Shown here piece by piece: positions 45,230 through 58,670 of a stretch of DNA of 64,000 nucleotides (position 1 is its first letter; each line of letters opens with the position of its first letter). The notes under the pieces are model-generated. The model saw only the letters and a program-made list of their open reading frames with translations. It was not told where the DNA came from and ran no database searches. The translations under genes and the position numbers were made by a program. This DNA comes from an archaeon. GTDB taxonomy: Archaea > Asgardarchaeota > Thorarchaeia > Thorarchaeales > Thorarchaeaceae. The stretch is from NCBI GenBank assembly GCA_024275415.1, contig JAJRZD010000020.1, positions 1 through 64,000 of the forward strand, in the 5' to 3' direction.

Positions 45230-46066
45230 CTACTCTCTTGGTACACTGCTAACCAAGTCACGATGAAGACGTTTCACTTGCGAGAGTACTAGACGTTCAC
45301 CATTGACAAGCACCTCGACATTGATGTGCTCTTTAAGACCGCTTGTAGATAGCTTTTTCATGAGAACACCTTCGACTTGGAACACACCAGCGGGGTTATC
45401 CATAGCTACTGTAATCCGCATGGGTTTGTCAGTTCCTTTCTCGAGGTGGACATCTTGAATAGCCATAGCACTTACGCTATGAATGTCAACCTTGCCTTTA
45501 TGAAAGGGAACCATTGTGCGCCCCTTGCTCATATCCGAGCCATCTCCAATCTTTGTGACACCAGCCTCAAAGGTCAGACATTGAATGTCATCATCATGAG
45601 AGTAGATTCCGTGGAGGATGGCCGAGAGAATATCAGTGGACTTCCCAGGGTCATCATAGATGTGATCCAGCTTCTTCTCCAGAATGGGAGCTGCAAGATG
45701 TATTGCGGCCTGGTAGTGCTCTTTCCGGTGTATCACCATTCCAAGATCGTGAAGATATGTCGATGAAAGAACAACCAGTCGTGCGTCATCGGAGTCGCCG
45801 ATACCTTCTGCGACGATATTGGGTTTGAACGTTTCGTCTAGGATGTCAAAGGCACGTAATGCATTCCAAGTTGCCACTTCAGCATGGACATGCCCATGAT
45901 CAGTGTACCCTAATCGTGCGACAGCCATCCGATTTGCTGTGCGCAGATAGGATTGGACGCGCGGAGAACCGCTGAGATATTGGTACATCTCAAGGGATTT
46001 CGTGTTCGGCTTCAACAGTGTGCGAGGGCTTACTTTCTCTCGATTGAAGGGTTCGGTGGAATTCAT
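45230..46066 (-). CDS. HD-domain phosphohydrolase
   Basis: DHGHVHAEV...STYLHDLGMVIHR. Confidence 0.82.
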   Translation of the reverse strand: MNSTEPFNREKVSPRTLLKPNTKSLEMYQYLSGSPRVQSYLRTANRMAVARLGYTDHGHVHAEVATWNALRAFDILDETFKPNIVAEGIGDSDDARLVVLSSTYLHDLGMVIHRKEHYQAAIHLAAPILEKKLDHIYDDPGKSTDILSAILHGIYSHDDDIQCLTFEAGVTKIGDGSDMSKGRTMVPFHKGKVDIHSVSAMAIQDVHLEKGTDKPMRITVAMDNPAGVFQVEGVLMKKLSTSGLKEHINVEVLVNGERLVLSQVKRLHRDLVSSVPRE

Positions 46067-46128: not shown

Positions 46129-49086
46129 CTATATTTCGCCAGCTTCTTCCTGGAAGGTCAGAAGAATCCTATCAGTTGCTGTTGTGGCTTTCTTGATAGT
46201 CTTGAGATAATCCTGACGCGACTTCTCAAACGCAGCACGGCTTATCTTTTGCTTCTTCTTTCTCAGGAGGAGCTGACGAAGACCAGCCTTGGCACCCTCG
46301 ATTTTCTCGTCTTGAAGTTCGAGTTGAGATATGAGATCGCGATACCGTGCACCATGTTGAATCAAGCTCTCCTTTAGTTTCGGTAGAGCTTTGTCCACCT
46401 CATTCATCTGATTCTTGATATCTCGTTCTCGGATCATGAACTCTTTCTTAGTGACCTTGCCTTTTCTCCTTGCAGATTCGAGCTTTTCCAACTCAAGGTT
46501 CAACGAAACCTTCTTTGAATAGGTCTTTGCAAATTCTGACAGGAGCTCGATAGGTGCACCAGCCTGTCGGGTTTCTACGTGGCTGTCAGTTCGGTCTTCT
46601 GCACCGGATGATGATTCGATAAAGCCCCATCGCCGATATGCCACAAAGATTGACGCAATGAAACCAATAATCATTGCAAAGACAACAGGACGTGATGCAG
46701 AACCGATTGATATGCTATATACTAACACAATCTGAGGTGGGTTATACCTAGTTGTGTTGTACTTGGTAAACCGAAGAGTGGCATCAAACACACCATGGAG
46801 CAACCGATAATCCCCACTCACAGATTTTACATCAATGGCTGGAGAGAGAACGACATCTACAACATGGGTCTGGACAAGAGTGTCGCCGAATGTCCCCATG
46901 GGTAGTGATAGGATGGTTCCGCTGGTGTTTGTTTGAATATAAGATTCCATCTGCACGGTATAGTCAATATAGAACGTGTAAGAGTAGCCAGGGAGAAAAC
47001 CTTTCTCTCCAAATCGATCTTTCTGAAGGTTAATCTGAAGCTTGAGTGTGGAGTTCAAATCCCACTCACCAGTGGGTTGCGAGTTCGCAAGAATACCGAC
47101 CTCATCGAATATCTTCACGGATGGGACATATTCAGGCAACGTGAAGAGGAGGATGCTCTCTTTTGCAGGACCTATGTTTCTCATAGATATCTCTTCATGA
47201 AAACGCATGTATCCCCAAGGGTCTATAGTAACCCTTGTGTACCTGTCCGCGAGAATCAATGGGGTGTATGAGGTCATCTCAAAGCTGAAAGACTCACTCT
47301 GCATGGGGAGCAAGTTATGCCAGACGCCTTCTGGAGTGTCAGTAAGGAGTGTATCACCACTCCTAAAGGCAAGTATCAGCTGAGCGGTTCTGAGTACGTA
47401 GGGAACCATTGGATATTTCATGAACTCGACTTCATAGGTATTCTCATCAAAATCAATGAGTGTATGAAGTGAGTGGAATTGGAAGGTTATTGTGAATCGA
47501 TAGGTGCGACCGTAATCAACAGCTTGGAACATATACACGCGCCAGTGATAGAGTCCCTGATAGTCCTCAAGTCGGACTATTTCGAGCGCGTTCTCGTCAG
47601 AATCGGCAGCACTTATGTCTAATAGGCGGTCACCATATTCTGCGGGGAGGAATATCTCGAGGGCATTGATAGGTGCAGAGCCGTTGTTCCTCACATCATA
47701 AACATCACGGACCTCAGTGGTATGGTAAAACTTTGTGGCCACGGTTCGTTCCACATCAAGTTTCATCCCTAGGAGTGGGAGGTATGGACGGTCAATGACA
47801 ATCTCTACGGACTGAACTGTCGTCACATTCGAGGGGTCTGTTGCGTTGACGAGGATAGTATGAGTGCCTTCATCTATTTCTGTAAGGTCAAGTGACGTTT
47901 CCCAAAGACCCGTCTGGAAGTCATAAGTTATCTCTGTCCATTCGTCATCATCCAATCGATAGAAGGTTCTTCGAACCCATGAGTTGTCTGACACGTTCAG
48001 AGAAAGATCTGCCACATATCCAAGCGTGGCATTTGCTTCAGGACTGTTGATCTGAATAGTGGGGCCTTCATTTGGAGTGAAAGAAGTCATAGGAGTTGCA
48101 GCCCATGCGGTATGTTGTGCCGGCAACTCAGAGATATCCTCACTACTGCCATACATGAGCATGAACGGATATGACAGATCAGTTGCATTGGTTAGAGGGA
48201 TATCATCAGGATCTGTGCTATTCATCAGAATGAAGTACTCGAGTTGTGTTTTCGTCCCATCGTCGCTTCCGTCTGCAGAGATAATCCTACTCTGGTTTGC
48301 ATCGGGCTGGTGTTGAAAGGTACTAATTCCATGTTCATCGCTGTATTCGATGTCGCTTGCAAGAGCTGGATTGCTGAATTCGTTGTTGATACGGGTAACA
48401 GTTATGATATACTCCAAATCCTGCCCATACATCGGATGCGATGGTTCGTTGTATGCCTCCTCAGCAGGAATGATAAAGTGCTTTGTTTCACCAATCCTCA
48501 TCCCAATGATGGCATCCTTGTAACCTTGTAAGAGACTCTCGTCACCGATAGGGGTTGTCGAATCATCATTCGGGACATTACCTTCTTCAACAAGAGTGCC
48601 ATTCCTCAGTTTGAGGATGTAGTGAACCGTAACTACATCAGATGCCTTGACTCTGGTATAGGTCTGATGAGGAGTCCCAGGGGCATAGCCGAAAATCAAA
48701 TCCGAATTGTTTAGACCATCTGACCGGAAATCATCGGTATAGTTCTTCCATCCTAGAGCGATCCAACCAGATGTCGCAGCCTCAAGGCCCACAAAAAGGA
48801 CTGACGAATTATGTTCCATGTACACGGTGATACCGGTCACAGGATCTGTGTAGGACGACGAATATTCCGTAGGGTCAATAATCCCATCAGCACGGCCAAA
48901 ATGTTCGTCAACATAGGGGATGGATAGATTGACAGAAGATTCAGCTAGCGCTATTGATGGGGCAGGATCAGATATCGTTGTGCTTCTGTCCCATCCATCA
49001 TTATCTAGGGTAAGTAGCATGACACTGTTGCTAAGTAGAAGTGTCAATAGTATGAGAATCGCTGCTCTTTGTTTAAACAGACCCAA
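46129..49086 (-). CDS. DOMON(FKBP-inserted)-Ig-like-ribophorin I-like membrane protein with cytosolic coiled coil
   Basis: Signal peptide; DOMON halves around FKBP segment SDVVTVHYILKLRNGTLVEEG...GMRIGETKHFIIPAEEAYN; ribophorin-like repeats; TM VVFAMIIGFIASIFVAY; charged coiled coil. Confidence 0.7.
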   Translation of the reverse strand: MGLFKQRAAILILLTLLLSNSVMLLTLDNDGWDRSTTISDPAPSIALAESSVNLSIPYVDEHFGRADGIIDPTEYSSSYTDPVTGITVYMEHNSSVLFVGLEAATSGWIALGWKNYTDDFRSDGLNNSDLIFGYAPGTPHQTYTRVKASDVVTVHYILKLRNGTLVEEGNVPNDDSTTPIGDESLLQGYKDAIIGMRIGETKHFIIPAEEAYNEPSHPMYGQDLEYIITVTRINNEFSNPALASDIEYSDEHGISTFQHQPDANQSRIISADGSDDGTKTQLEYFILMNSTDPDDIPLTNATDLSYPFMLMYGSSEDISELPAQHTAWAATPMTSFTPNEGPTIQINSPEANATLGYVADLSLNVSDNSWVRRTFYRLDDDEWTEITYDFQTGLWETSLDLTEIDEGTHTILVNATDPSNVTTVQSVEIVIDRPYLPLLGMKLDVERTVATKFYHTTEVRDVYDVRNNGSAPINALEIFLPAEYGDRLLDISAADSDENALEIVRLEDYQGLYHWRVYMFQAVDYGRTYRFTITFQFHSLHTLIDFDENTYEVEFMKYPMVPYVLRTAQLILAFRSGDTLLTDTPEGVWHNLLPMQSESFSFEMTSYTPLILADRYTRVTIDPWGYMRFHEEISMRNIGPAKESILLFTLPEYVPSVKIFDEVGILANSQPTGEWDLNSTLKLQINLQKDRFGEKGFLPGYSYTFYIDYTVQMESYIQTNTSGTILSLPMGTFGDTLVQTHVVDVVLSPAIDVKSVSGDYRLLHGVFDATLRFTKYNTTRYNPPQIVLVYSISIGSASRPVVFAMIIGFIASIFVAYRRWGFIESSSGAEDRTDSHVETRQAGAPIELLSEFAKTYSKKVSLNLELEKLESARRKGKVTKKEFMIRERDIKNQMNEVDKALPKLKESLIQHGARYRDLISQLELQDEKIEGAKAGLRQLLLRKKKQKISRAAFEKSRQDYLKTIKKATTATDRILLTFQEEAGEI

Positions 49087-49268: not shown

Positions 49269-50285
49269 ATGCTCTTGATGCTGATGGTTGCACTGGTTTC
49301 CTTTGTTATCGTCGTGATGTTCATGCCAGGAACGATAAGGATGCTCCGAGAGAAGGATATCGTTGGCATCGATGTGCACAAACACAATAAACCTGAGGTG
49401 CCCAAAGGCGGAGGTTTCGTGTTTCTCTTTGCAATAGTGGCATCAATTCTAGTAGTCATTGGTGTAACAACATTCCAAGAGGGCAACGTGAACCCAGGAC
49501 TTCTAGCAGCATTGGTTTCAATACTGATGGCGGGGATGATAGGCCTTCTAGATGACACCTTCGATTTCAGGAATCGCACAAAGGTCGTACTTCCACTTGT
49601 CGCTTCCATACCAATCATTGCAATGCAAGTAGGCACAACAAAGATGGACATCCCTCTCATTGGCACTATTGATTTAGGAATAATATACCCCCTGATTGTA
49701 GTCCCATTGATGATGACGTTCATTATCGATTCCACGAACATGTACGGAGGAATGAATGGACTAGAATCAATCTTGGCTGCGATAAATGCCTCTGCGATTG
49801 TGATGTTTCTCGTCTTGAAGACAGTACTGTTTCAGGACACAATCTCCAGTGGACAAGCAGATGCAGGAATTGTCGCAGGAGCACTATTGGGGGCTTCAAT
49901 CGGATTTCTCATCTTCAACTGGTATCCGGCAAAGGTGCTCCCCGGGGATGTAGGAAGACTTGCACTCGGTGCAACTATTGCTTCTGCATTGATCTTGGGG
50001 AACATGGATCGCCTCGCGGTGATGCTCTATGCACCGTTCATGTTCAATTTCTTGCTCTATCTCATATATCGTGTTCATGTGAAAAGAACAGGAAAAGAAT
50101 GGACCAAATTCGCAAAGCCAAGAGAGGATGGCACTCTTGAGGTTGTGGGCCCCTACACAATGTATTGGCTGTTGCCACATCTCTCGAAGAAGGTAACTGA
50201 AAGATTGAACGTGGTGATGCTTGCGCTCCTTCAGGCATTGCTTGCCTATGGTACAATCTATTTGATATTATTCCCGGTATTCTGA
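49269..50285 (+). CDS. ALG7/WecA/MraY-family N-acetylglucosaminyl-1-phosphate transferase
   Basis: Polytopic; HKHNKPEVPKGGG, GLLDDTFDFRNRTK, DSTNMYGGMNGLES, VLPGDVGRLALGA. Confidence 0.9.
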   Translation: MLLMLMVALVSFVIVVMFMPGTIRMLREKDIVGIDVHKHNKPEVPKGGGFVFLFAIVASILVVIGVTTFQEGNVNPGLLAALVSILMAGMIGLLDDTFDFRNRTKVVLPLVASIPIIAMQVGTTKMDIPLIGTIDLGIIYPLIVVPLMMTFIIDSTNMYGGMNGLESILAAINASAIVMFLVLKTVLFQDTISSGQADAGIVAGALLGASIGFLIFNWYPAKVLPGDVGRLALGATIASALILGNMDRLAVMLYAPFMFNFLLYLIYRVHVKRTGKEWTKFAKPREDGTLEVVGPYTMYWLLPHLSKKVTERLNVVMLALLQALLAYGTIYLILFPVF

Positions 50286-50304: not shown

Positions 50305-51357
50305 TTATTGAATCTTTGTTGGAAGATACTCGTCAACTACAAAGTCGATTCCAAAACGGCTGAAGGCCTGCTGCTCAGCTTTCTTTCGAAGTCGCCTGAA
50401 GGATTCTATTGCGGATTGCCAGTCATCGGATAAATAACGCGAGTCTTTGGACAGTTCGTCTAATCTCTTAAGATCACGATTATTCATGTCCTCACAGGGA
50501 AGATTGTATCTCACAATATCATCAGCATTCACCCCAATCCATTCAGCTGTCGGGATTGCTAAATCGCGGATGTGTGCTGCATTAGCACTGCCTGCAATGA
50601 TGACCCTTGCGATGTGCATCCCCCACGGGTCGCCATCGGTGAATATCTTCACAGGCAAGTGCAGTTCGTCGTGCAATCGTCGCATCAATCTTCGTGTCGA
50701 TCGAGGTGCCTGGCCACCCAGATGCACCAAAATACAGTCGAATCGTTCCCAGCATCGGGTTTCGATGAGTCGGGAGAACATTCCCCCGGACTCGACAGCA
50801 AGAATGAGCTTGGCATCCGTCCTTACAGGAGATGCCGAGAGTAGGGCAGGACCTATCGGCAATCCATCGGGACTTATCGTGAGGTCAACTTCCTTGTCTT
50901 CATAGCCTTTGACAGTGTAACGCATGATAACTTTCCCGTAGATAGAAGAATGCTCTTCCGGGAAGAAACCCAATGACTCACGGGGATATTCAATCAGGGC
51001 TTCAAGGTCAGATAATAATCTGTCCGATTCAGCTTGGTCTTTGAATCTGACGCCGAACGCCTCACTTGAATAGTAGAGGTCTCTTAGAGAGCTTGTCCTA
51101 CCGGACTCAAGAAGTCGCTTCGAGAATGAAGCGATCCACATTAGCTGCATGAAGCTCCGAATATGCTTGCTATTTGACGAGTCGCGGGTAGTCCTAGAGT
51201 CCCCAAGGATGAATTGCTCGGTCTGCTCGTCAAACACTATGTTTTCTGTACTCCGAGCAGGTATCTCAATTCTTGGAAAATGTCCATCCTCAATTGATGA
51301 CAGAATCTTTTTCCCCAGCTCAGTCAAACTCTTGATAGGGTCGCTCATATCAGACAT
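50305..51357 (-). CDS. top6A: DNA topoisomerase VI subunit A
   Basis: LRDLYYSSEAFGVRF; FTDGDPWGMHIARV Toprim. Confidence 0.95.
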   Translation of the reverse strand: MSDMSDPIKSLTELGKKILSSIEDGHFPRIEIPARSTENIVFDEQTEQFILGDSRTTRDSSNSKHIRSFMQLMWIASFSKRLLESGRTSSLRDLYYSSEAFGVRFKDQAESDRLLSDLEALIEYPRESLGFFPEEHSSIYGKVIMRYTVKGYEDKEVDLTISPDGLPIGPALLSASPVRTDAKLILAVESGGMFSRLIETRCWERFDCILVHLGGQAPRSTRRLMRRLHDELHLPVKIFTDGDPWGMHIARVIIAGSANAAHIRDLAIPTAEWIGVNADDIVRYNLPCEDMNNRDLKRLDELSKDSRYLSDDWQSAIESFRRLRKKAEQQAFSRFGIDFVVDEYLPTKIQ

Positions 51358-52876
51358 CGCTATCTACCTCGAAAAGTTCGTTAATCATCCGTGATGTGTC
51401 AGGAATATTGTCAACCCCTGCAACCTCACTACTGAACTTGGCCAGCAGGTTGAAAAGCCTTGAGAACTCCTTCAACTTCCGTCTAGAATGTAAAGCACGC
51501 TTCTTCCCCTCAGAAAACACTTTCAGTTTTCGGCCAAGCTCACGATACAATGATAGTATCTCAGAGGTAATTGAACTGACTGATGTGATGGATTGCTTCC
51601 CAGCCGCTGAATAAGGAACCCTAATGGAGCAGAAGTGTGTGAAGATAGCTACGCCACTGATTTCAGGAGGCTTGTATCGCGCCCAAGGGATGCGCTTGAG
51701 TGTCTTCGCAAAGACATCATCAGTTGAGTCATAGAGCAGCGGTACACGATTGGCAAACCTGAAGAGATGTGGAATGTCGGATTGTTCGAATGCATCACTA
51801 ATTGCCAACACACCTTCCACGATATACGGGAAACCATCCCATTCGAGGGGGCCTCGTTGGGAATAACCAATCACTGTGGCGTTGAATTCTTTCCGAATCG
51901 CATTAAAGAACGACTCCTTTCCGACAGGACTCAGGCAAGTCGCACTTGGTTTCCCAAACTTGTCATACTTGCGGAGAGAATTGCCTAGATATGAGAGCGC
52001 TTCTCTATCAAGAGACCCTATTGTCGCTCGCGGATCCATCCGGATGAAATTGAGAAATTTTTCAGCGGTCTTATGCCCTAGCTGCTGAAAGGAACCAACC
52101 AGAAATTCGTGAAGACGCAGATCCGGATTCTTTGCAGCAAGACGTCTGATTAGTTCAAGATCTGCTGCATGGGGATGTGGCAACGAGTCCACTGGTAGTG
52201 AAGGGATCTTCTTGGTGAACCCTCCGAAAGTGTACCGTTCTGTATCATCCAATGATAGAGTGATCCGCGCATGGGGAGTGGAAATGCCAGTTAGTCGCAA
52301 ATATTCGATGACACGCTCGCGAGATCGTTTCAAATCACCATTCAATGTGATGTGTACTGTGGTACCTCGCTCTTTCCGTTTCAACGGGTTCGACGATTTG
52401 ACGATAGGTGAGTTTGATTCGATATCGATGTACACACTGTATTCGTTCCCTTCGTTCTGAGCGGTTTTTGTGTGTATTACAGCTGGTGTACCTGTCGAGA
52501 TCTGTCCATAGAGTACCGCCATTGTGACCCCAAGCCCAAAGGTGCCTCGCCTCTGTCTAGAACTATATTTGTTGCCATACAACACCTTGCCAAACGCGTT
52601 TGGAACGTTCTCATCGGGCACCCCAGTACCATTGTCAGATACCGACACGGTGCAGGTGCGTCCAAGCTCGGATTGGATTGTTACATCTACGGTAGGAAGC
52701 ACTCTTGCTTCCTCACATGAATCAAGGCTGTTCTCTACGAGTTCTCGCACTGTCGTGTACAGCGACTGGGTCGGGTTCTCAAAGCCAGCCATCTGTCGGT
52801 TCCTGTAGAAGAATTCGGCTGGTGATATCCCTCTGAAGTTTCCAGACGCTGAACCAGTCATAGTGTTCAATCTCAT
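51350..52876 (-). CDS. top6B: DNA topoisomerase VI subunit B
   Basis: VRELVENSLDSCEE; SDNGTGVP; RRGTFGLGVTMAVLYGQ. Confidence 0.96.
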   Translation of the reverse strand: MRLNTMTGSASGNFRGISPAEFFYRNRQMAGFENPTQSLYTTVRELVENSLDSCEEARVLPTVDVTIQSELGRTCTVSVSDNGTGVPDENVPNAFGKVLYGNKYSSRQRRGTFGLGVTMAVLYGQISTGTPAVIHTKTAQNEGNEYSVYIDIESNSPIVKSSNPLKRKERGTTVHITLNGDLKRSRERVIEYLRLTGISTPHARITLSLDDTERYTFGGFTKKIPSLPVDSLPHPHAADLELIRRLAAKNPDLRLHEFLVGSFQQLGHKTAEKFLNFIRMDPRATIGSLDREALSYLGNSLRKYDKFGKPSATCLSPVGKESFFNAIRKEFNATVIGYSQRGPLEWDGFPYIVEGVLAISDAFEQSDIPHLFRFANRVPLLYDSTDDVFAKTLKRIPWARYKPPEISGVAIFTHFCSIRVPYSAAGKQSITSVSSITSEILSLYRELGRKLKVFSEGKKRALHSRRKLKEFSRLFNLLAKFSSEVAGVDNIPDTSRMINELFEVDSDV

Positions 52877-52916
52877 ATCATAAGGATGATATTTTCAGGC
52901 CGCGTATTACGCTTGG

Positions 52917-53486
52917 TCAGTAGTCGCTCATCCAAAGCTCGGATTTGATTCGGTTAATCTCACGGCGACTTCTCTCAAGGTATTTGTAGACAGAGCCATG
53001 TGGAGCGCCATCAATCAACATGGTCACAGCCCGAGTTGCATAATCAAGCTGTGGATCATAACCTATGATAGCAACTGTCCGCCCATACACCGAAACTTTG
53101 GTTTCTGTAACCTCCTCAATCACCCGACGAGTACGGCCGTTCTCGCCAATTATCCTACCTGCCACCCGTTTCAGCTGAGATGGAGAAGTGCCAACAAACT
53201 CTCTAAGAGAGATGATTACTAGGCGGGCGTCCTCATCAATCAGAGACAGAGCACGTTTGGGACTAAAACCTCGTGCCATTGCCTGAATGATGTCCCGTGC
53301 TTTCCAAAGGAGCACATGATCGTCGGCATTCGCAGAACCCCTAATAGTGACGACACCATCTGAGCCGACCTCAATCTTAGTGTTCGTTAGTTGTTCGACT
53401 CGTTTGCGGACACGTCCATTTCGCCCCACTATGACTGCAATACGTTCCTCGGGAACACGAATTACTTTATGAAACATCATTTTCAA
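52917..53486 (-). CDS. KH-domain RNA-binding protein (Pno1/Dim2-like)
   Basis: Two KH motifs IAVIVGRNGRVRKRVE and AGRIIGENGRTRRVIEE. Confidence 0.9.
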   Translation of the reverse strand: MKMMFHKVIRVPEERIAVIVGRNGRVRKRVEQLTNTKIEVGSDGVVTIRGSANADDHVLLWKARDIIQAMARGFSPKRALSLIDEDARLVIISLREFVGTSPSQLKRVAGRIIGENGRTRRVIEEVTETKVSVYGRTVAIIGYDPQLDYATRAVTMLIDGAPHGSVYKYLERSRREINRIKSELWMSDY

Positions 53487-54271
53487 GAATCACCTGAGTT
53501 AAGAATCTCGGAGGTCAGGTCTTGGGGGTCCTGGGTATCCACTCCAAGTTTATTGAAGAAGTGTGTTATGTTTTTAATATCACGATAGAGGTATCTCGAA
53601 GCATTATCGTGGTCACGGACAAGAGATTGTGATACATCAATGAAAACAGGTTCGCCCACCCAGAGAATGTTATACTCGCTGAGGTCTGCATGCACAAGCT
53701 TTGCTTTTGTATAGCCCATCTTAATCATCTTGATGATGTCACGATAGGTCGTTTCTGGCGAAGGTATTTCCACGTTCTTGATCAATGGCGCTGCAGTCGC
53801 ATTTTTTTGGTCGCCAATGAATTCCATTATCAGCACATTCCGATATATGGCAACAGGCTTAGGTACGCGCACACCAGCATCATAATAGCGAGCAAGGTTC
53901 TTGTATTCCTTCATGGCCCATTGTGGCACAAGAACCCTATTCTTTCGCCCCACACGTTTGAAACGAGGGTCTCCAACCATATATTCCCTCATAAAATCGG
54001 TTTCTGCTGTCGAAACACGGTATATCTTCACAGCAACCGATTTGTTATCAGTGGTTTCTCCACGATACACATTTGCTTCTTTCCCTGTACTTATGACACC
54101 ATGAACTGCATTGATGACACCCCTGTTGAAAAGACGAAAGATGACCTTGAGTGTTGGAGGGTCAATTACGCCCTCAACAACCTTGAATTCGTCATCATCA
54201 CGGCGACGCTTTGACCTGCGACTGTCTAGTTGGTCTTCGATCTTGCGCCGTTGCTTTTCAGCTCTCTTCAA
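53483..54271 (-). CDS. rio1: RIO1-family serine protein kinase
   Basis: STGKEANVYRG; KLVHADLSEYNILW; FIDVSQS. Confidence 0.95.
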   Translation of the reverse strand: MKRAEKQRRKIEDQLDSRRSKRRRDDDEFKVVEGVIDPPTLKVIFRLFNRGVINAVHGVISTGKEANVYRGETTDNKSVAVKIYRVSTAETDFMREYMVGDPRFKRVGRKNRVLVPQWAMKEYKNLARYYDAGVRVPKPVAIYRNVLIMEFIGDQKNATAAPLIKNVEIPSPETTYRDIIKMIKMGYTKAKLVHADLSEYNILWVGEPVFIDVSQSLVRDHDNASRYLYRDIKNITHFFNKLGVDTQDPQDLTSEILNSGDS

Positions 54272-54349
54272 TTCAGTTTATCACCTGTCAGATAGGATAC
54301 TATCCTTTCAAGAGAATGTACCTATGAAGAAAAAGCTTGAGATTGTTAT

Positions 54350-54679
54350 CTAAAACATCTTGAGAATCTTATGTCGGTTCAGCCAATCAAGCTCGTTGTT
54401 TCGATACCTATAGACGACATCGCATTTCTGATCAGACTGGAACTCCCACGGAACTACAAGAACCGTATCACCAATTCGCATCCAGACTCGCTTTTTCATT
54501 CGACCGGGTATCCTCCCAATCCGGATATTGCCATCTTCGCAACGTATCCTGACACGGTCATGTCCAAGCATCTGGATGATGATTCCAAAAAGCTCACCAT
54601 TATCTCGATTAGGTGTCCGTACACGGACTAATTCTCCATCGGGTCCTATTACTGGTCCATCTCGTCTTCGTCGTGACAA
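54350..54679 (-). CDS. eif1A: Translation initiation factor eIF1A
   Basis: QMLGHDRVRIRCEDGNIRIGRIPGRMKKRVWMRIGDTVLV. Confidence 0.95.
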   Translation of the reverse strand: MSRRRRDGPVIGPDGELVRVRTPNRDNGELFGIIIQMLGHDRVRIRCEDGNIRIGRIPGRMKKRVWMRIGDTVLVVPWEFQSDQKCDVVYRYRNNELDWLNRHKILKMF

Positions 54680-54782
54680 AATAATCCTCCAATCAATGCT
54701 AGGGGTGCCCTAGCCGCTATGTCTGGAAGTACTACCAAGCATTTAAGACTAACGAAATCGCCACCTTACTGTGGCTCACCCC

Positions 54783-55856
54783 TTATTCGGGGACAGGATA
54801 TAGCTTGTTATTGTGCTCAATGAGATAGATAGAGTCACCCGACACATACTGTCGGATCGATTCGTCATCAAGCTCGAGTATTTCGAATGTGTCCGATGCC
54901 ATTACCTGAAGAGGCTTCCCATAGACATTAGAAACGACAGTGAACTCGCGTTTGGAATCTCCCTCTGTGATGAATCTGATAGTCTTCCATTTCGAGCTCT
55001 TTGGAGAAACAGTGAACCTATGCCGTCTTACAAGGTCATAGCAGGTAAGTCCGCCCTTCCCCATCTTCAGAACTCGACATGGATTGCCTACAACCTCAAT
55101 GAAGTCCCCTGGCAAGAATTGAGGGAGTCGAAGAAGAATCGTTGTTCTGTACTTCTTCTTGCCGCCCCTGTCTTGGGAATATAACTTGAAATTCTCCTTT
55201 CTGCTCGCTAGGAATTGTGCCTCAACCTCTTCGGCAATCTTACGACAGAGTAAATCGGATCCGAGGTACAGATCCAAACCAAATTTTGTTTCATCTATCT
55301 GTAAAATGAAAGCACGAGTGTCTTTCCCGTATTCGGCAATAGTGCGTTCTTTGGCAATCTCAAGTATCTGATCCTGCTCTTCTTTTGTCAACGGCCGTTC
55401 ATCAGCCCGAATCTGTAGGGTCGCCTCATAATAACCGCCGCTCATCATTGAGCACGAATCGCAGGACATGTAGGAATACCGTATCTCTGTGGGGTATTCT
55501 TCTGTATGTGGTTCTAGGTCTGGAGCGGACTTTCCTGTCACAACTAGGCGTACCAACAGAACTCTATCCAATCGGTTCTCTTCAATAATATCCACACTCA
55601 GTCCCGGTACCAATGGGGTTATTTCCATATCTAGAAGTATGTCAATCTGTTCTGCCCTCTGTGCATCTTTGTTTTGTGATGACAGGGTCTTCCATCCGCC
55701 AGGAATTTTCACGGAGCCACACTTTTTGCAAATTGTTATAGACAGCGGAGAACTCACTTTGACTAGTGGATGCTCGTTGTTGTAACAATTCTGGCAGAGA
55801 CCATCCAGAATAGATGGCTCTCCACACAAATAGCAAGGAGATCTCATCGCGTCCAC
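54783..55856 (-). CDS. nmd3: NMD3-family protein
   Basis: Zinc-binding CYLCGEPSILDGLCQNCY and CKKCGSVKIPGGW; CDSC. Confidence 0.88.
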   Translation of the reverse strand: MDAMRSPCYLCGEPSILDGLCQNCYNNEHPLVKVSSPLSITICKKCGSVKIPGGWKTLSSQNKDAQRAEQIDILLDMEITPLVPGLSVDIIEENRLDRVLLVRLVVTGKSAPDLEPHTEEYPTEIRYSYMSCDSCSMMSGGYYEATLQIRADERPLTKEEQDQILEIAKERTIAEYGKDTRAFILQIDETKFGLDLYLGSDLLCRKIAEEVEAQFLASRKENFKLYSQDRGGKKKYRTTILLRLPQFLPGDFIEVVGNPCRVLKMGKGGLTCYDLVRRHRFTVSPKSSKWKTIRFITEGDSKREFTVVSNVYGKPLQVMASDTFEILELDDESIRQYVSGDSIYLIEHNNKLYPVPE

Positions 55857-55946
55857 TGGAGTTTTGGACGTCTGAGATACTTATGAATTCAGTTGTAGGA
55901 GATGACGACTATATTCGCGAGAGTAGGGAACAGAAAAGTGTCAGTG

Positions 55947-56249
55947 CTAGAGCTTCATCCATTGGGCGTGAGGCTCCCCTTGGATGTAAAGGACAGCATT
56001 CTTATGGACGAGTCCGGCCTCAATTGCTGCTGTGACGGTGATCGTGCCAATCATGTTGGCAATGGTCGCGTTTTGGAGGTATTTGATGCAAGTTGCAGTG
56101 TCAACTAGATCACCTCCATAGAACTCCTTGCTTACATTGAAGCGTATCTCACCATCAATGAGAGTTCGTCCAAGTAGATTCTCATCACAAGCAGACACAA
56201 GTACGTGGTCCAATGTTTCACGAATTCGAACATAGACTGATTTTGACAT
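55947..56249 (-). CDS. DUF424-family protein
   Basis: VLVSACDENLLGRTLIDGEIRFNVSKEFYGG; between NMD3 and eIF2-beta. Confidence 0.85.
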   Translation of the reverse strand: MSKSVYVRIRETLDHVLVSACDENLLGRTLIDGEIRFNVSKEFYGGDLVDTATCIKYLQNATIANMIGTITVTAAIEAGLVHKNAVLYIQGEPHAQWMKL

Positions 56250-56259
56250 TGAAGGAACC

Positions 56260-56673
56260 TCATACAGGACGAATCGATGTGCTTGCCCCGCAGGCGGAGC
56301 ACTTCAGATAATATGCGTGTCCGTCCTTGTCCATGTTAGTATCGGGACGACCACACACAGGACAAAGGACATAGGCATCGATATATTTCGAAAGAACCTC
56401 ATTAACCGTATTTGCTGTAAATTTGCCTTGGAAAATAGCACTTCCACCCTCCATATTCCCAGCTGTTGCCAGCTGCCCAGCGACATATTTGAGTACCTCT
56501 TTGCCAGGCCTGTTGAGGACACCCAGAATCTCTTGGAAATTCTGCCAGATTGTCCTAGTCCCCTGGATCATCAGCTGGACATGAGGTACCTTGAATCGTT
56601 CACCAGAACGTTTGAACGCATCTTCAGGCACACTATCTCTTGCCCTTTCAAGCAATTTCTCGTAGTCGTCCAT
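56260..56673 (-). CDS. eif2b: Translation initiation factor 2 beta
   Basis: GTRTIWQNFQEI; YVLCPVCGRPDTNMDKDGHAYYLKCSACGA. Confidence 0.96.
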   Translation of the reverse strand: MDDYEKLLERARDSVPEDAFKRSGERFKVPHVQLMIQGTRTIWQNFQEILGVLNRPGKEVLKYVAGQLATAGNMEGGSAIFQGKFTANTVNEVLSKYIDAYVLCPVCGRPDTNMDKDGHAYYLKCSACGASTSIRPV

Positions 56674-56725
56674 GTATAATGTTTCCCCGTTAATAGTTAT
56701 TGAAGGTTCTGATTAGTCACATAGG

Positions 56726-57418
56726 CTAGTCGATAGGACGATAGACCCCGACCTCCTGTTCCATGATCAGTTCTTTGTCCACTAAATCAAGTATCTCCAG
56801 ATTGATCTGCCAAGCGTCAACACCCTTTTCCTCAAAATGAGATACGATGGTCTTGATACCTACACCATCCGGGTTATCATTATCGATGATATATTGGAGA
56901 ATCTCGCCAGCGACACCGCCAACGCCAGACTTCAGAGATGGTTTAGAAGGCGAGGACGGTTCGATAAATGATTCCAATGCGCCTTCACGGGTCGAATGCT
57001 GTTTGGTGGTATTGCCATCCTTATTTTGACGAAGAATGGTCATCTGGCGCTCGTACTTGTGGATAACAAGCAAGTTTGGATCATCAATTGGCTTGACAAT
57101 CTCAGGTGCAATATAGATCTCATCGTTATACTCTCGGATTCTACCAATCACCATGGCGAGGACATTCAAGTCAATCTTTTGCAGCAGAGATGCTTTAGCA
57201 CCCCATACCTTGGCACGGATGACTCCAGTGCCATCATCAAGTGTGATGCTAGCATAATTATTGTCGCCGGCAACCTGATCCACTATACTTCCTAGAAGGA
57301 ACACACGACGGAGTTCCACTCCTTGAGGAGTTATCACACGGAATCCCTCATCCTCACTATATTCGCCATCGAGTATATCACTAACAGATGCTCGGATCGC
57401 AGTCTGTCGCTCCTTCAC
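56726..57418 (-). CDS. RPA32-like OB-fold protein with C-terminal winged helix
   Basis: RRVFLLGSIVDQVAGDNNYASITLDDGTGVIRAKVWG; wH-like C-terminus. Confidence 0.82.
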   Translation of the reverse strand: MKERQTAIRASVSDILDGEYSEDEGFRVITPQGVELRRVFLLGSIVDQVAGDNNYASITLDDGTGVIRAKVWGAKASLLQKIDLNVLAMVIGRIREYNDEIYIAPEIVKPIDDPNLLVIHKYERQMTILRQNKDGNTTKQHSTREGALESFIEPSSPSKPSLKSGVGGVAGEILQYIIDNDNPDGVGIKTIVSHFEEKGVDAWQINLEILDLVDKELIMEQEVGVYRPID

Positions 57419-57482
57419 AGAATCATGTCACCTGCCTGCCAGATGTCTGTCGTGACCACCCTTTATAGAGTTCACTATTACA

Positions 57483-58517
57483 CTAGAAGAAATCAGACAA
57501 TGAGCTCTGTTGTACCCCCTCGCGTTCCGCTTCACGCTTCTGTATTAAGCGCTCAAGTGCAGCAGTCACACGGTTCGCACTAAAATCATGCTCTGAGCAG
57601 AGAATCATTGTGACCTCTTCGACGTTAGGATCTTCCCAAGAAAACGGTTTAACCTCCATATTGGGAGGGTCTAAGAATATCTTACGGATTTCCTCAAACG
57701 GGAAATCAATCGTGTATTTCCCTGATTCAATGATTCCTTCAATAGAACCAAACTCACGAATGAGTTTGAGCGCAGTCTTAGGACCTACCCGAGGAACCTT
57801 GTCATTGTAATCCGTTCCAACAAGTAAGGCGATATCAATCAGCTGCTCTCGTGAGATGCCTAACAATCTCAAGTTCAGGTCTAAATCAATCAATTCCGGA
57901 GAGATTATCTTGAAGGTATTAGTTCGTGAAACGCGTCTTTTGCCTGAAACTGAAAGGTTCCGTATCATTCTTGGACAATTATATAGGAGAGAGTCATTGT
58001 CTTGGCTTGCACTAGCATACACCATGTTCTCCCTAGCCATCTGTGCTGCCAGCGCTTCACCCTCAGACGGAGCTTGTATCCATGGGATACCCATTGCGGT
58101 CAACAGCCGCTTGCTCTCGTCAATCATCCCAGTGGTGAGTGTGGAGCTTGCCTGTGCTGCTTTTCGCGCATCATCGATTCGTCCTTCTTTCTTAGCAAGC
58201 TGCCATTCTTCAAATGCAGCTTCACGAACCGCTCGCCGCCTCTCAACTTCTCCAGACTTGAGTTTGGGCGGTTCACCATCAAAGACATAAACTGGAAGTA
58301 TCCCTTGTTCGAGAAGGTTCATATTGCGATAGAATATCCCGCTTAGGTGGCTAGTGACTCTTCCTTTCCGATCCATGAGGGGAGTTCCATCACGCTGTCT
58401 GATAGTGGAGAGAAATTGGTACAGGGTATTGAACGCATCTATAGCAACCTTCTTCCCTGCGAGATCAGATATTGTTATTTTCTGAGCTTGTATGATGTCA
58501 GAGAGTTTTGTCCCCAT
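57483..58517 (-). CDS. fen: Flap endonuclease 1
   Basis: Start MGTKLSD at 58517; KVAIDAFNTLYQFLSTIRQRDGTPLMD; VGTDYNDKVPRVGPKTALKLI; PIP box QQSSLSDFF. Confidence 0.95.
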   Translation of the reverse strand: MGTKLSDIIQAQKITISDLAGKKVAIDAFNTLYQFLSTIRQRDGTPLMDRKGRVTSHLSGIFYRNMNLLEQGILPVYVFDGEPPKLKSGEVERRRAVREAAFEEWQLAKKEGRIDDARKAAQASSTLTTGMIDESKRLLTAMGIPWIQAPSEGEALAAQMARENMVYASASQDNDSLLYNCPRMIRNLSVSGKRRVSRTNTFKIISPELIDLDLNLRLLGISREQLIDIALLVGTDYNDKVPRVGPKTALKLIREFGSIEGIIESGKYTIDFPFEEIRKIFLDPPNMEVKPFSWEDPNVEEVTMILCSEHDFSANRVTAALERLIQKREAEREGVQQSSLSDFF

Positions 58518-58670
58518 TGAATCCGCTCCAACACTCAGTAGGAGTGGTTTATCATATATCATTTGAGGAGTGCTTCCTAATGAGTACTCTTCGGTAAGTT
58601 TATAATATTCCCAAAGGTGGCGACAGGAGACCAACACCAAATATTTGGCTCTGGTGATACTTTGTCAACA

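What the first reader, a model, noticed from the sequence alone, without database searches (positions are those of the whole stretch)
46129..49086. Ribophorin I (Ost1)-like fusion carrying DOMON, FKBP and coiled-coil modules
The region at about 46690-47770 reads like eukaryotic ribophorin I: two tandem beta-rich halves, KLDVERTVATKFYHTTEVRDVYDVRNNGSAPIN... and RYTRVTIDPWGYMRFHEEISMRNIGPAKESILLFTLPEYVPSVKIFDEVGILANS...GFLPGYSYTFYIDYTVQMESYI. Ribophorin-like OST subunits have been described in Asgard genomes. The N-terminal DOMON and FKBP modules plus a cytosolic coiled coil would make this an unusual multi-domain oligosaccharyltransferase-associated protein, combining folding and glycosylation functions.
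Basis: partly seen in the sequence, partly recalled or inferred. Interest (0 to 1): 0.88.

Follow-up and report, generated by a model that had tools for sequence, protein, structure and literature searches.

The report
Ost1 glycosylation subunit with built-in FKBP
In one whole class of Asgard archaea (Thorarchaeia), the protein that in our own cells helps attach sugars to newly made proteins and docks ribosomes (Ost1/ribophorin I) carries an exported protein-folding domain (FKBP, set inside a DOMON domain), suggesting that folding and sugar attachment are physically joined in these relatives of eukaryotes.

Summary
A 985-aa ORF (46129-49086, minus strand, TTG start) has this order: signal peptide, DOMON domain split by an inserted FKBP domain, Ig-like domain, two-part Ost1 lumenal domain, one transmembrane helix, cytosolic four-helix bundle. 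Asgard Ost1 is already published. The N-terminal module is the new part: one full-length frame in 42 of 47 class genomes (46-62% identity), on Ost1 in none of 185 other Asgard genomes searched, and more conserved than the Ost1 lumenal domains. Elsewhere in Asgards, DOMON and FKBP occur as separate exported, membrane-anchored proteins; in the Thorarchaeia checked, the only exported FKBP found is the fused one. The gene is divergent from a DPAGT1/ALG7-like GPT in 29 of 31 loci. I read it as a constitutive OST/translocon subunit placing a folding/peptide-binding module beside the nascent chain. PPIase activity, DOMON ligand and assembly with STT3 are inferred. New variant of a known kind.

The parts
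46129..49086 (-). Thorarchaeial Ost1 (ribophorin I) with N-terminal DOMON/FKBP/Ig extension, 985 aa, TTG start
49012..49086 (-). signal peptide (residues ~1-25, MGLFKQRAAILILLTLLLSNSVMLL)
   Evidence: sequence shows it directly; positive n-region and hydrophobic h-region in aligned homologues; not tested with SignalP
48664..48933 (-). DOMON, first half (residues 52-141), with conserved DGIIDPxEY
48379..48663 (-). FKBP-type domain inserted in the DOMON (residues 142-236; Pfam hit 145-228)
48091..48378 (-). DOMON, second half (residues 237-332)
47791..48078 (-). Ig-like domain (Big_7; residues 337-432)
47251..47769 (-). Ost1 lumenal-type domain 1 (residues 440-612)
46717..47250 (-). Ost1 lumenal-type domain 2 (residues 613-790; Pfam Ribophorin_I hit 646-749)
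46612..46707 (-). single transmembrane helix (residues 794-825)
   Evidence: helix 365-396 of the model
46132..46560 (-). cytosolic four-helix bundle (residues 843-985), homologous to 8WHN, which binds ribosomes
   Evidence: PMC11417166
49269..50285 (+). GPT: DPAGT1/ALG7-like UDP-GlcNAc:polyprenyl-phosphate GlcNAc-1-P transferase, divergent neighbour
45230..46066 (-). conserved downstream gene (278 aa, no Pfam hit; H-D motif by eye), kept beside Ost1 in Thorarchaeia

Best explanation
This is the single Ost1/ribophorin I orthologue of a Thorarchaeia genome, a non-catalytic subunit of a membrane oligosaccharyltransferase at the Sec61-type translocon. The cytosolic four-helix bundle docks the translating ribosome, one helix anchors the protein, and the two-domain Ost1 ectodomain packs with STT3. 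On its outer (N-terminal) end the lineage has permanently added an exported module, a DOMON beta-sandwich carrying an inserted FKBP domain, followed by an Ig-like spacer. I propose that this module holds or isomerises nascent chains as they leave the translocon and meet STT3, so that folding and N-glycosylation happen at one site. Shown: Ost1 homology over its whole length, the nested architecture, its conservation, its restriction to the class, and linkage to a GlcNAc-1-P transferase gene. Inferred: assembly with STT3 and the translocon, ribosome binding by this copy, contact with nascent chains, and PPIase activity or DOMON ligand.
For: Ost1: Pfam above cut-off; profile to human and yeast Ost1 and 8WHN; a Thorarchaeia-only profile still reaches 8WHN at 1.2e-10; Foldseek top eight all Ost1; one TM helix plus four cytosolic helices in the model; 8WHN binds ribosomes experimentally (PMC11417166). 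Genome has one STT3 and OST3/6-like parts. GPT is divergent from Ost1 in 29 of 31 Thorarchaeia loci and lies within the fetched 10-17 kb around Ost1 in 7 of 17 other Asgard genomes. Module: full-length fusion in 42 of 47 class genomes, on Ost1 in none of 185 others. Mean pairwise identity: DOMON-A 64%, FKBP 58%, DOMON-B 54%, Ost1 domains 42-48%, bundle 70%. The modules are separate exported, membrane-anchored proteins in other Asgards and no separate exported FKBP was found among the Thorarchaeia FKBPs read. Ectodomain has 16 N-X-S/T sequons against 5.8 expected by shuffling.
Against: No experiment on this protein. The FKBP pocket is altered: Y26 and Y82 are kept, I56 is L and W59 is Y, but F36 is variable, D37 is Q/E and F46 is S, so catalytic activity is uncertain. 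In the human translocon FKBP11's site is buried and it is argued to act as an adaptor, not an isomerase (PMC12804085). The Thorarchaeia-only full-length profile did not list eukaryotic Ost1 at E<=0.01; intermediate Asgard sequences or structure were needed. TRAP-alpha hits in this genome are below cut-off.
Confidence: 0.78

Rival explanations
1. The N-terminal module is only a scaffold or recruiter: the FKBP domain is catalytically dead and, like FKBP11 in human translocons, binds a partner protein, while the DOMON binds some ligand. Glycosylation is the protein's only enzymatic context. This is a rival to the nascent-chain folding step, not to the Ost1 assignment.
For: FKBP pocket residues are degraded at F36, D37 and F46. 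Human FKBP11 buries its site against CCDC134 and is argued not to be an isomerase (PMC12804085). A ribophorin-less relative with the same DOMON(FKBP)-Ig part and its own TM exists in G015, so the module has a use apart from Ost1.
Against: Y26, Y82, the aromatic at W59 and the glycine G69 are invariant or nearly so in 23 sequences, consistent with a retained peptide-binding groove.
Confidence: 0.4
2. The ribophorin-like part has left the OST: it is an S-layer or adhesion-type surface protein built from beta-sandwich domains that uses the Ost1 fold as a generic scaffold.
For: Many beta-sandwich domains, high sequon content, Ig-like domain.
Against: Only one Ost1-like gene in the genome; the ribosome-binding bundle is the best-conserved part (70%), unexpected for a mere surface protein; linkage to GPT; Foldseek is specific to Ost1 and far ahead of generic sandwiches.
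Confidence: 0.04
3. The fusion is an assembly or gene-calling artefact (chimeric contig or read-through).
For: The genome is in 127 contigs and is not fully clean (4.46% contamination).
Against: The same architecture in one open frame in 42 of 47 independent genomes at 46-62% identity with the same neighbours.
Confidence: 0.01

Closest known systems
MK-D1 OST1 (Lokiarchaeon, WP_147663064.1, PDB 8WHN; PMC11417166)
   Same: Signal peptide, Ost1 ectodomain, one TM, cytosolic four-helix bundle; bundle homologous by phmmer at 1.7e-6 and by profiles at 1.2e-10 and 1.7e-29
   Different: Other Asgard Ost1 frames are mostly about 560-760 aa and lack the DOMON/FKBP/Ig extension
Eukaryotic Ost1 / ribophorin I (human 6s7o_E, 8b6l_O; yeast 6ezn_A)
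   Same: Two-domain lumenal part, TM and (human) cytosolic bundle; Foldseek E 3.5e-30, profile E 6.6e-38
   Different: 14-15% identity in the structural alignment; no FKBP or DOMON in cis; eukaryotes bring FKBP11 (PMC12804085) and the lectin malectin (PMC9144812) to the OST in trans
FKBP11 at the human secretory translocon (9n9j_A)
   Same: An exported FKBP domain held at the OST/ribosome-translocon; structural hit E 7e-5, sequence hit 9e-4
   Different: Separate single-pass protein, recruited during synthesis of certain substrates; here the FKBP is a fixed part of Ost1 and sits inside a DOMON; the shared location is most simply convergent (not tested by a tree)
Stand-alone exported Asgard FKBPs and DOMON proteins (L117-L131)
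   Same: Same domains, including the YTxPxHxLYG-type stretch in the FKBP; joined DOMON halves align to the L129 DOMON at 3e-13 across the insertion point
   Different: Separate genes with their own membrane anchors, not attached to Ost1

Membership tests
Ost1 / ribophorin I (PF04597) | Significant match to the family profile | tested here: met
   27.4 bits against a cut-off of 25; 26.9 bits in the genome search
Ost1 / ribophorin I (PF04597) | Two tandem beta-rich ectodomains with the Ost1 fold | tested here: met
   AlphaFold pLDDT 87.5; Foldseek top eight all Ost1, TM-score up to 0.69 normalised by target
Ost1 / ribophorin I (PF04597) | N-terminal signal peptide, single TM, type I topology | tested here: inconclusive
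   Signal-like N-terminus in the alignment and one TM helix in the model; SignalP not run, cleavage and topology not tested
Ost1 / ribophorin I (PF04597) | Cytosolic four-helix bundle that binds ribosomes | tested here: met
   Four helices modelled, homologous to 8WHN at 1.7e-6; ribosome binding itself shown only for the MK-D1 and human proteins, not for this one
Ost1 / ribophorin I (PF04597) | Physical subunit of an OST complex with STT3 | not testable with these tools
   Only co-occurrence: one STT3 and OST3/6-like parts in the genome, GPT linkage
FKBP-type PPIase (PF00254) | Match to family profile and fold | tested here: met
   43.3 bits against a cut-off of 21.1; all 23 members match; FKBP structures among the best Foldseek hits
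FKBP-type PPIase (PF00254) | Intact catalytic pocket (Y26, F36, D37, F46, V55, I56, W59, Y82 of FKBP12) | tested here: inconclusive
   Y26 and Y82 invariant, W59 as Y/F, I56 as L; F36 variable, D37 as Q/E, F46 as S
DOMON (PF03351) | Match to family profile above cut-off | tested here: not met
   Intact proteins: one of 23 members at 5.9e-5. With the FKBP set aside: 14.9 bits (window) and 23 bits (L027) against a cut-off of 32.7; each half alone none
DOMON (PF03351) | Homology to an undisputed DOMON across the insertion point | tested here: met
   Joined halves align to L129 (PF03351 E 2e-28) at 3e-13, 29% identity, through the junction
DOMON (PF03351) | Heme or sugar ligand bound | not testable with these tools
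   No invariant Met/His pair evident in the DOMON columns; ligand unknown

The most novel reading that the evidence does not exclude
Thorarchaeia have a constitutive folding-and-glycosylation subunit: an FKBP chaperone/prolyl isomerase built covalently into Ost1 and acting on nascent chains beside STT3, so exported folding help at the translocon existed in Asgard archaea without an ER, and the FKBP11- and malectin-like functions recruited to Ost1 in eukaryotes have a cis-fused counterpart in archaea.
Probability: 0.45. Interest if true: 0.78.

Novelty: new variant of a known kind. Interest (0 to 1): 0.63.

Why it matters
How the eukaryotic ER came to couple translocation, N-glycosylation and folding is an open question of eukaryogenesis. 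Carilo et al. (PMC11417166) reported no predicted signal peptides on homologues of ER chaperones in Asgard archaea and took the chaperone homologues to be cytoplasmic. Here an exported FKBP is fixed to the OST subunit that, in a relative, binds ribosomes, in nearly every sampled member of a class, and exported stand-alone FKBPs occur in other Asgards. That makes the question testable: one soluble piece of about 385 residues and one bundle can be expressed and assayed for PPIase/holdase activity and ribosome binding.

Tried and rejected
Generic beta-sandwich or DUF reading of 435-810: rejected, the weakest of the eight Ost1 chains leads the next fold by some 10 orders of magnitude. Assembly chimera: rejected. 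Coiled coil as a general oligomeriser: replaced by the four-helix bundle. DOMON as a plain N-terminal domain: replaced by a DOMON interrupted by the FKBP. Heme binding by the DOMON: no invariant Met/His pair seen, not pursued. TRAP-alpha in this genome: only sub-threshold hits. Foldseek on the N-terminal model gave FKBPs and assorted Ig-like proteins, no DOMON named among the 50 listed, so the DOMON claim rests on sequence. Literature searches for Thorarchaeota with FKBP, for Asgard with peptidyl-prolyl and translocon, for Asgard with oligosaccharyltransferase and FKBP, and for ribophorin I with FKBP, fusion and archaea found no paper in the held library, which lacks most subscription journals, so absence there is weak evidence of novelty. 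FKBP12 residue numbering rests on the FKBP2 alignment and my knowledge of FKBP12.

Full report
What is there. The minus-strand ORF 46129-49086 codes for 985 aa and is the only Ost1-like gene in the 92.9%-complete genome. A GGTGAt motif precedes the TTG start, and most aligned homologues looked at show the same motif and TTG. Pfam finds FKBP_C at 145-228 (4.7e-11), Big_7 at 342-413 (2.3e-6) and Ribophorin_I at 646-749 (27.4 bits, cut-off 25).

Ost1 part. phmmer of the single sequence against the PDB gives as best hit 8WHN, the cytosolic domain of MK-D1 OST1 (1.7e-6, residues 841-975). A profile of 23 Thorarchaeia and 15 other Asgard sequences matches human Ost1 (6s7o_E, 6.6e-38), 8WHN (1.7e-29) and yeast Ost1 (6c26_1, 1.9e-19). 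A profile of the Thorarchaeia alone, full length, finds 8WHN (1.2e-10) and FKBPs but no eukaryotic Ost1 at E <= 0.01, so sequence alone needs the Asgard intermediates. The AlphaFold model of 430-985 (pLDDT 87.5) has beta-rich domains, one long TM helix and four cytosolic helices. Its eight best PDB matches are all Ost1, 3.5e-30 to 6e-19; the next are integrins at 3e-8.

N-terminal module. The AlphaFold model of 52-436 (pLDDT 87.2) gives beta strands before and after an FKBP unit. FKBP2/FKBP13 and human FKBP11 in the translocon are among the structural matches. When the FKBP residues are left out, the two flanking pieces together match DOMON weakly (14.9 bits in the window, 23 bits in L027, cut-off 32.7) and neither piece alone does. 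The joined pieces align at 3e-13 through the junction to L129, a stand-alone exported protein that is an unambiguous DOMON (2e-28). So the FKBP is inserted in a DOMON; DOMON membership is met by homology and not by the Pfam cut-off. In the FKBP, Y26 and Y82 equivalents are invariant, W59 is Y (one F), I56 is L, F36 varies, D37 is Q/E and F46 is S in 23 sequences (numbering by alignment to FKBP2 and my knowledge of FKBP12). A peptide-binding groove is likely; catalysis is open.

Distribution. In the class (47 genomes) 45 have a match; 42 carry it in one frame of 822 aa or more, G001 and G043 in pieces on two contigs, G045 only a C-terminal fragment, G006 and G011 none (my count). In 232 Asgard genomes the Ost1 profile finds frames mostly of about 560-760 aa outside the class, and the N-terminal profile finds no further fusion: all listed hits outside the class lie in frames of 389 aa or less. 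Those read out include signal-peptide FKBPs with a TM helix and often a zinc-ribbon-like tail, N-terminally TM-anchored FKBPs, and exported DOMON proteins, some with a C-terminal TM. Sixteen Thorarchaeia genomes have the fused FKBP plus one FKBP in a frame of about 258-317 aa, and two have an extra FKBP12-like one. The ones read out, including our own genome's, begin without a signal peptide. Separate proteins in one group and a fusion in another is the classical sign of a functional link (inference).

Constraint. Mean pairwise identity is 64% DOMON-A, 58% FKBP, 54% DOMON-B, 45% Ig, 42% and 48% for the two Ost1 domains, 70% for the cytosolic bundle. The added module is therefore held more tightly than the Ost1 domains it sits on. 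The ectodomain of the window protein has 16 N-X-S/T sequons against 5.8 in shuffles (none of 1000 as high; five homologues similar), so it is probably itself N-glycosylated (inference).

Surroundings. The divergent neighbour 49269-50285 belongs to Glycos_transf_4 and is closer to human DPAGT1 (1.4e-19) than to MraY (1.4e-10): by family knowledge, the first enzyme of lipid-linked oligosaccharide assembly. It lies beside Ost1 in 29 of 31 Thorarchaeia loci; in the two without it (L009, L021) the contig ends at or within the start of the gene. A GPT relative also lies in the fetched stretch around Ost1 in 7 of 17 other Asgard genomes, so the linkage is wider than the fusion. STT3 is at G000:C10:26394, with an OST3/6-type membrane part 4 kb away and thioredoxin-type parts elsewhere.

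Comparison with what is known. Asgard Ost1, OST3/6, STT3 and others are published (PMC10307638; PMC8813620), and MK-D1 OST1's bundle binds human ribosomes (PMC11417166). In mammals FKBP11 joins the secretory translocon but is argued to be an adaptor (PMC12804085), and malectin binds ribophorin I (PMC9144812). DOMON domains are described as heme- or sugar-binding (PMC4846438). A glycan-binding DOMON on Ost1 would parallel malectin; that is speculation. I found no paper in the held library that describes the fusion.

Verdict. A true Ost1 with a lineage-wide exported DOMON/FKBP/Ig extension: a new variant of a known kind. That it is Ost1 is close to certain; that the extension serves nascent-chain folding at the OST is plausible but untested.

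Noticed in passing
L077:3130-4887 (G015:C125): A ribophorin-less relative: signal peptide, DOMON with inserted FKBP, Ig-like domains, own TM, 586-aa frame. Shows the module can live apart from Ost1 (genome 9% contaminated, so its owner is uncertain).
   Followed up: partly
L117, L119, L121, L122, L124-L128; L118, L120, L123: Exported, membrane-anchored stand-alone FKBPs in other Asgard families, several with a C-terminal zinc-ribbon-like tail; one family (G209, G210, G213) uses an N-terminal TM anchor.
   Followed up: partly
L078, L080, L086, L087, L089, L092, L094: A GPT (DPAGT1-like) gene lies near Ost1 in 7 of 17 non-thorarchaeial Asgard genomes, in varying orientation.
   Followed up: partly
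G006 (single contig, 86% complete): No Ost1 match at all, although two genomes of the same genus have it; loss, masking or assembly gap not distinguished.
   Followed up: no
G000:C10:22133-22447, C60:688-858, C21:26892-27047: OST3/6 seems split: a membrane part of 139 aa near STT3, and thioredoxin-type parts elsewhere (a 370-aa tandem thioredoxin frame).
   Followed up: no
window 45230-46066 (-): 278-aa protein with no Pfam or NCBIfam hit, 65-80% identical and next to Ost1 in nearly all Thorarchaeia loci; contains an H-D motif by eye.
   Followed up: no
window 50305-58640 (-): Topo VI A and B, a PNO1/KRR1-like KH protein, RIO kinase, NMD3 and FEN1-like (XPG) genes follow on one strand, an archaeal information-processing cluster.
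   Followed up: no
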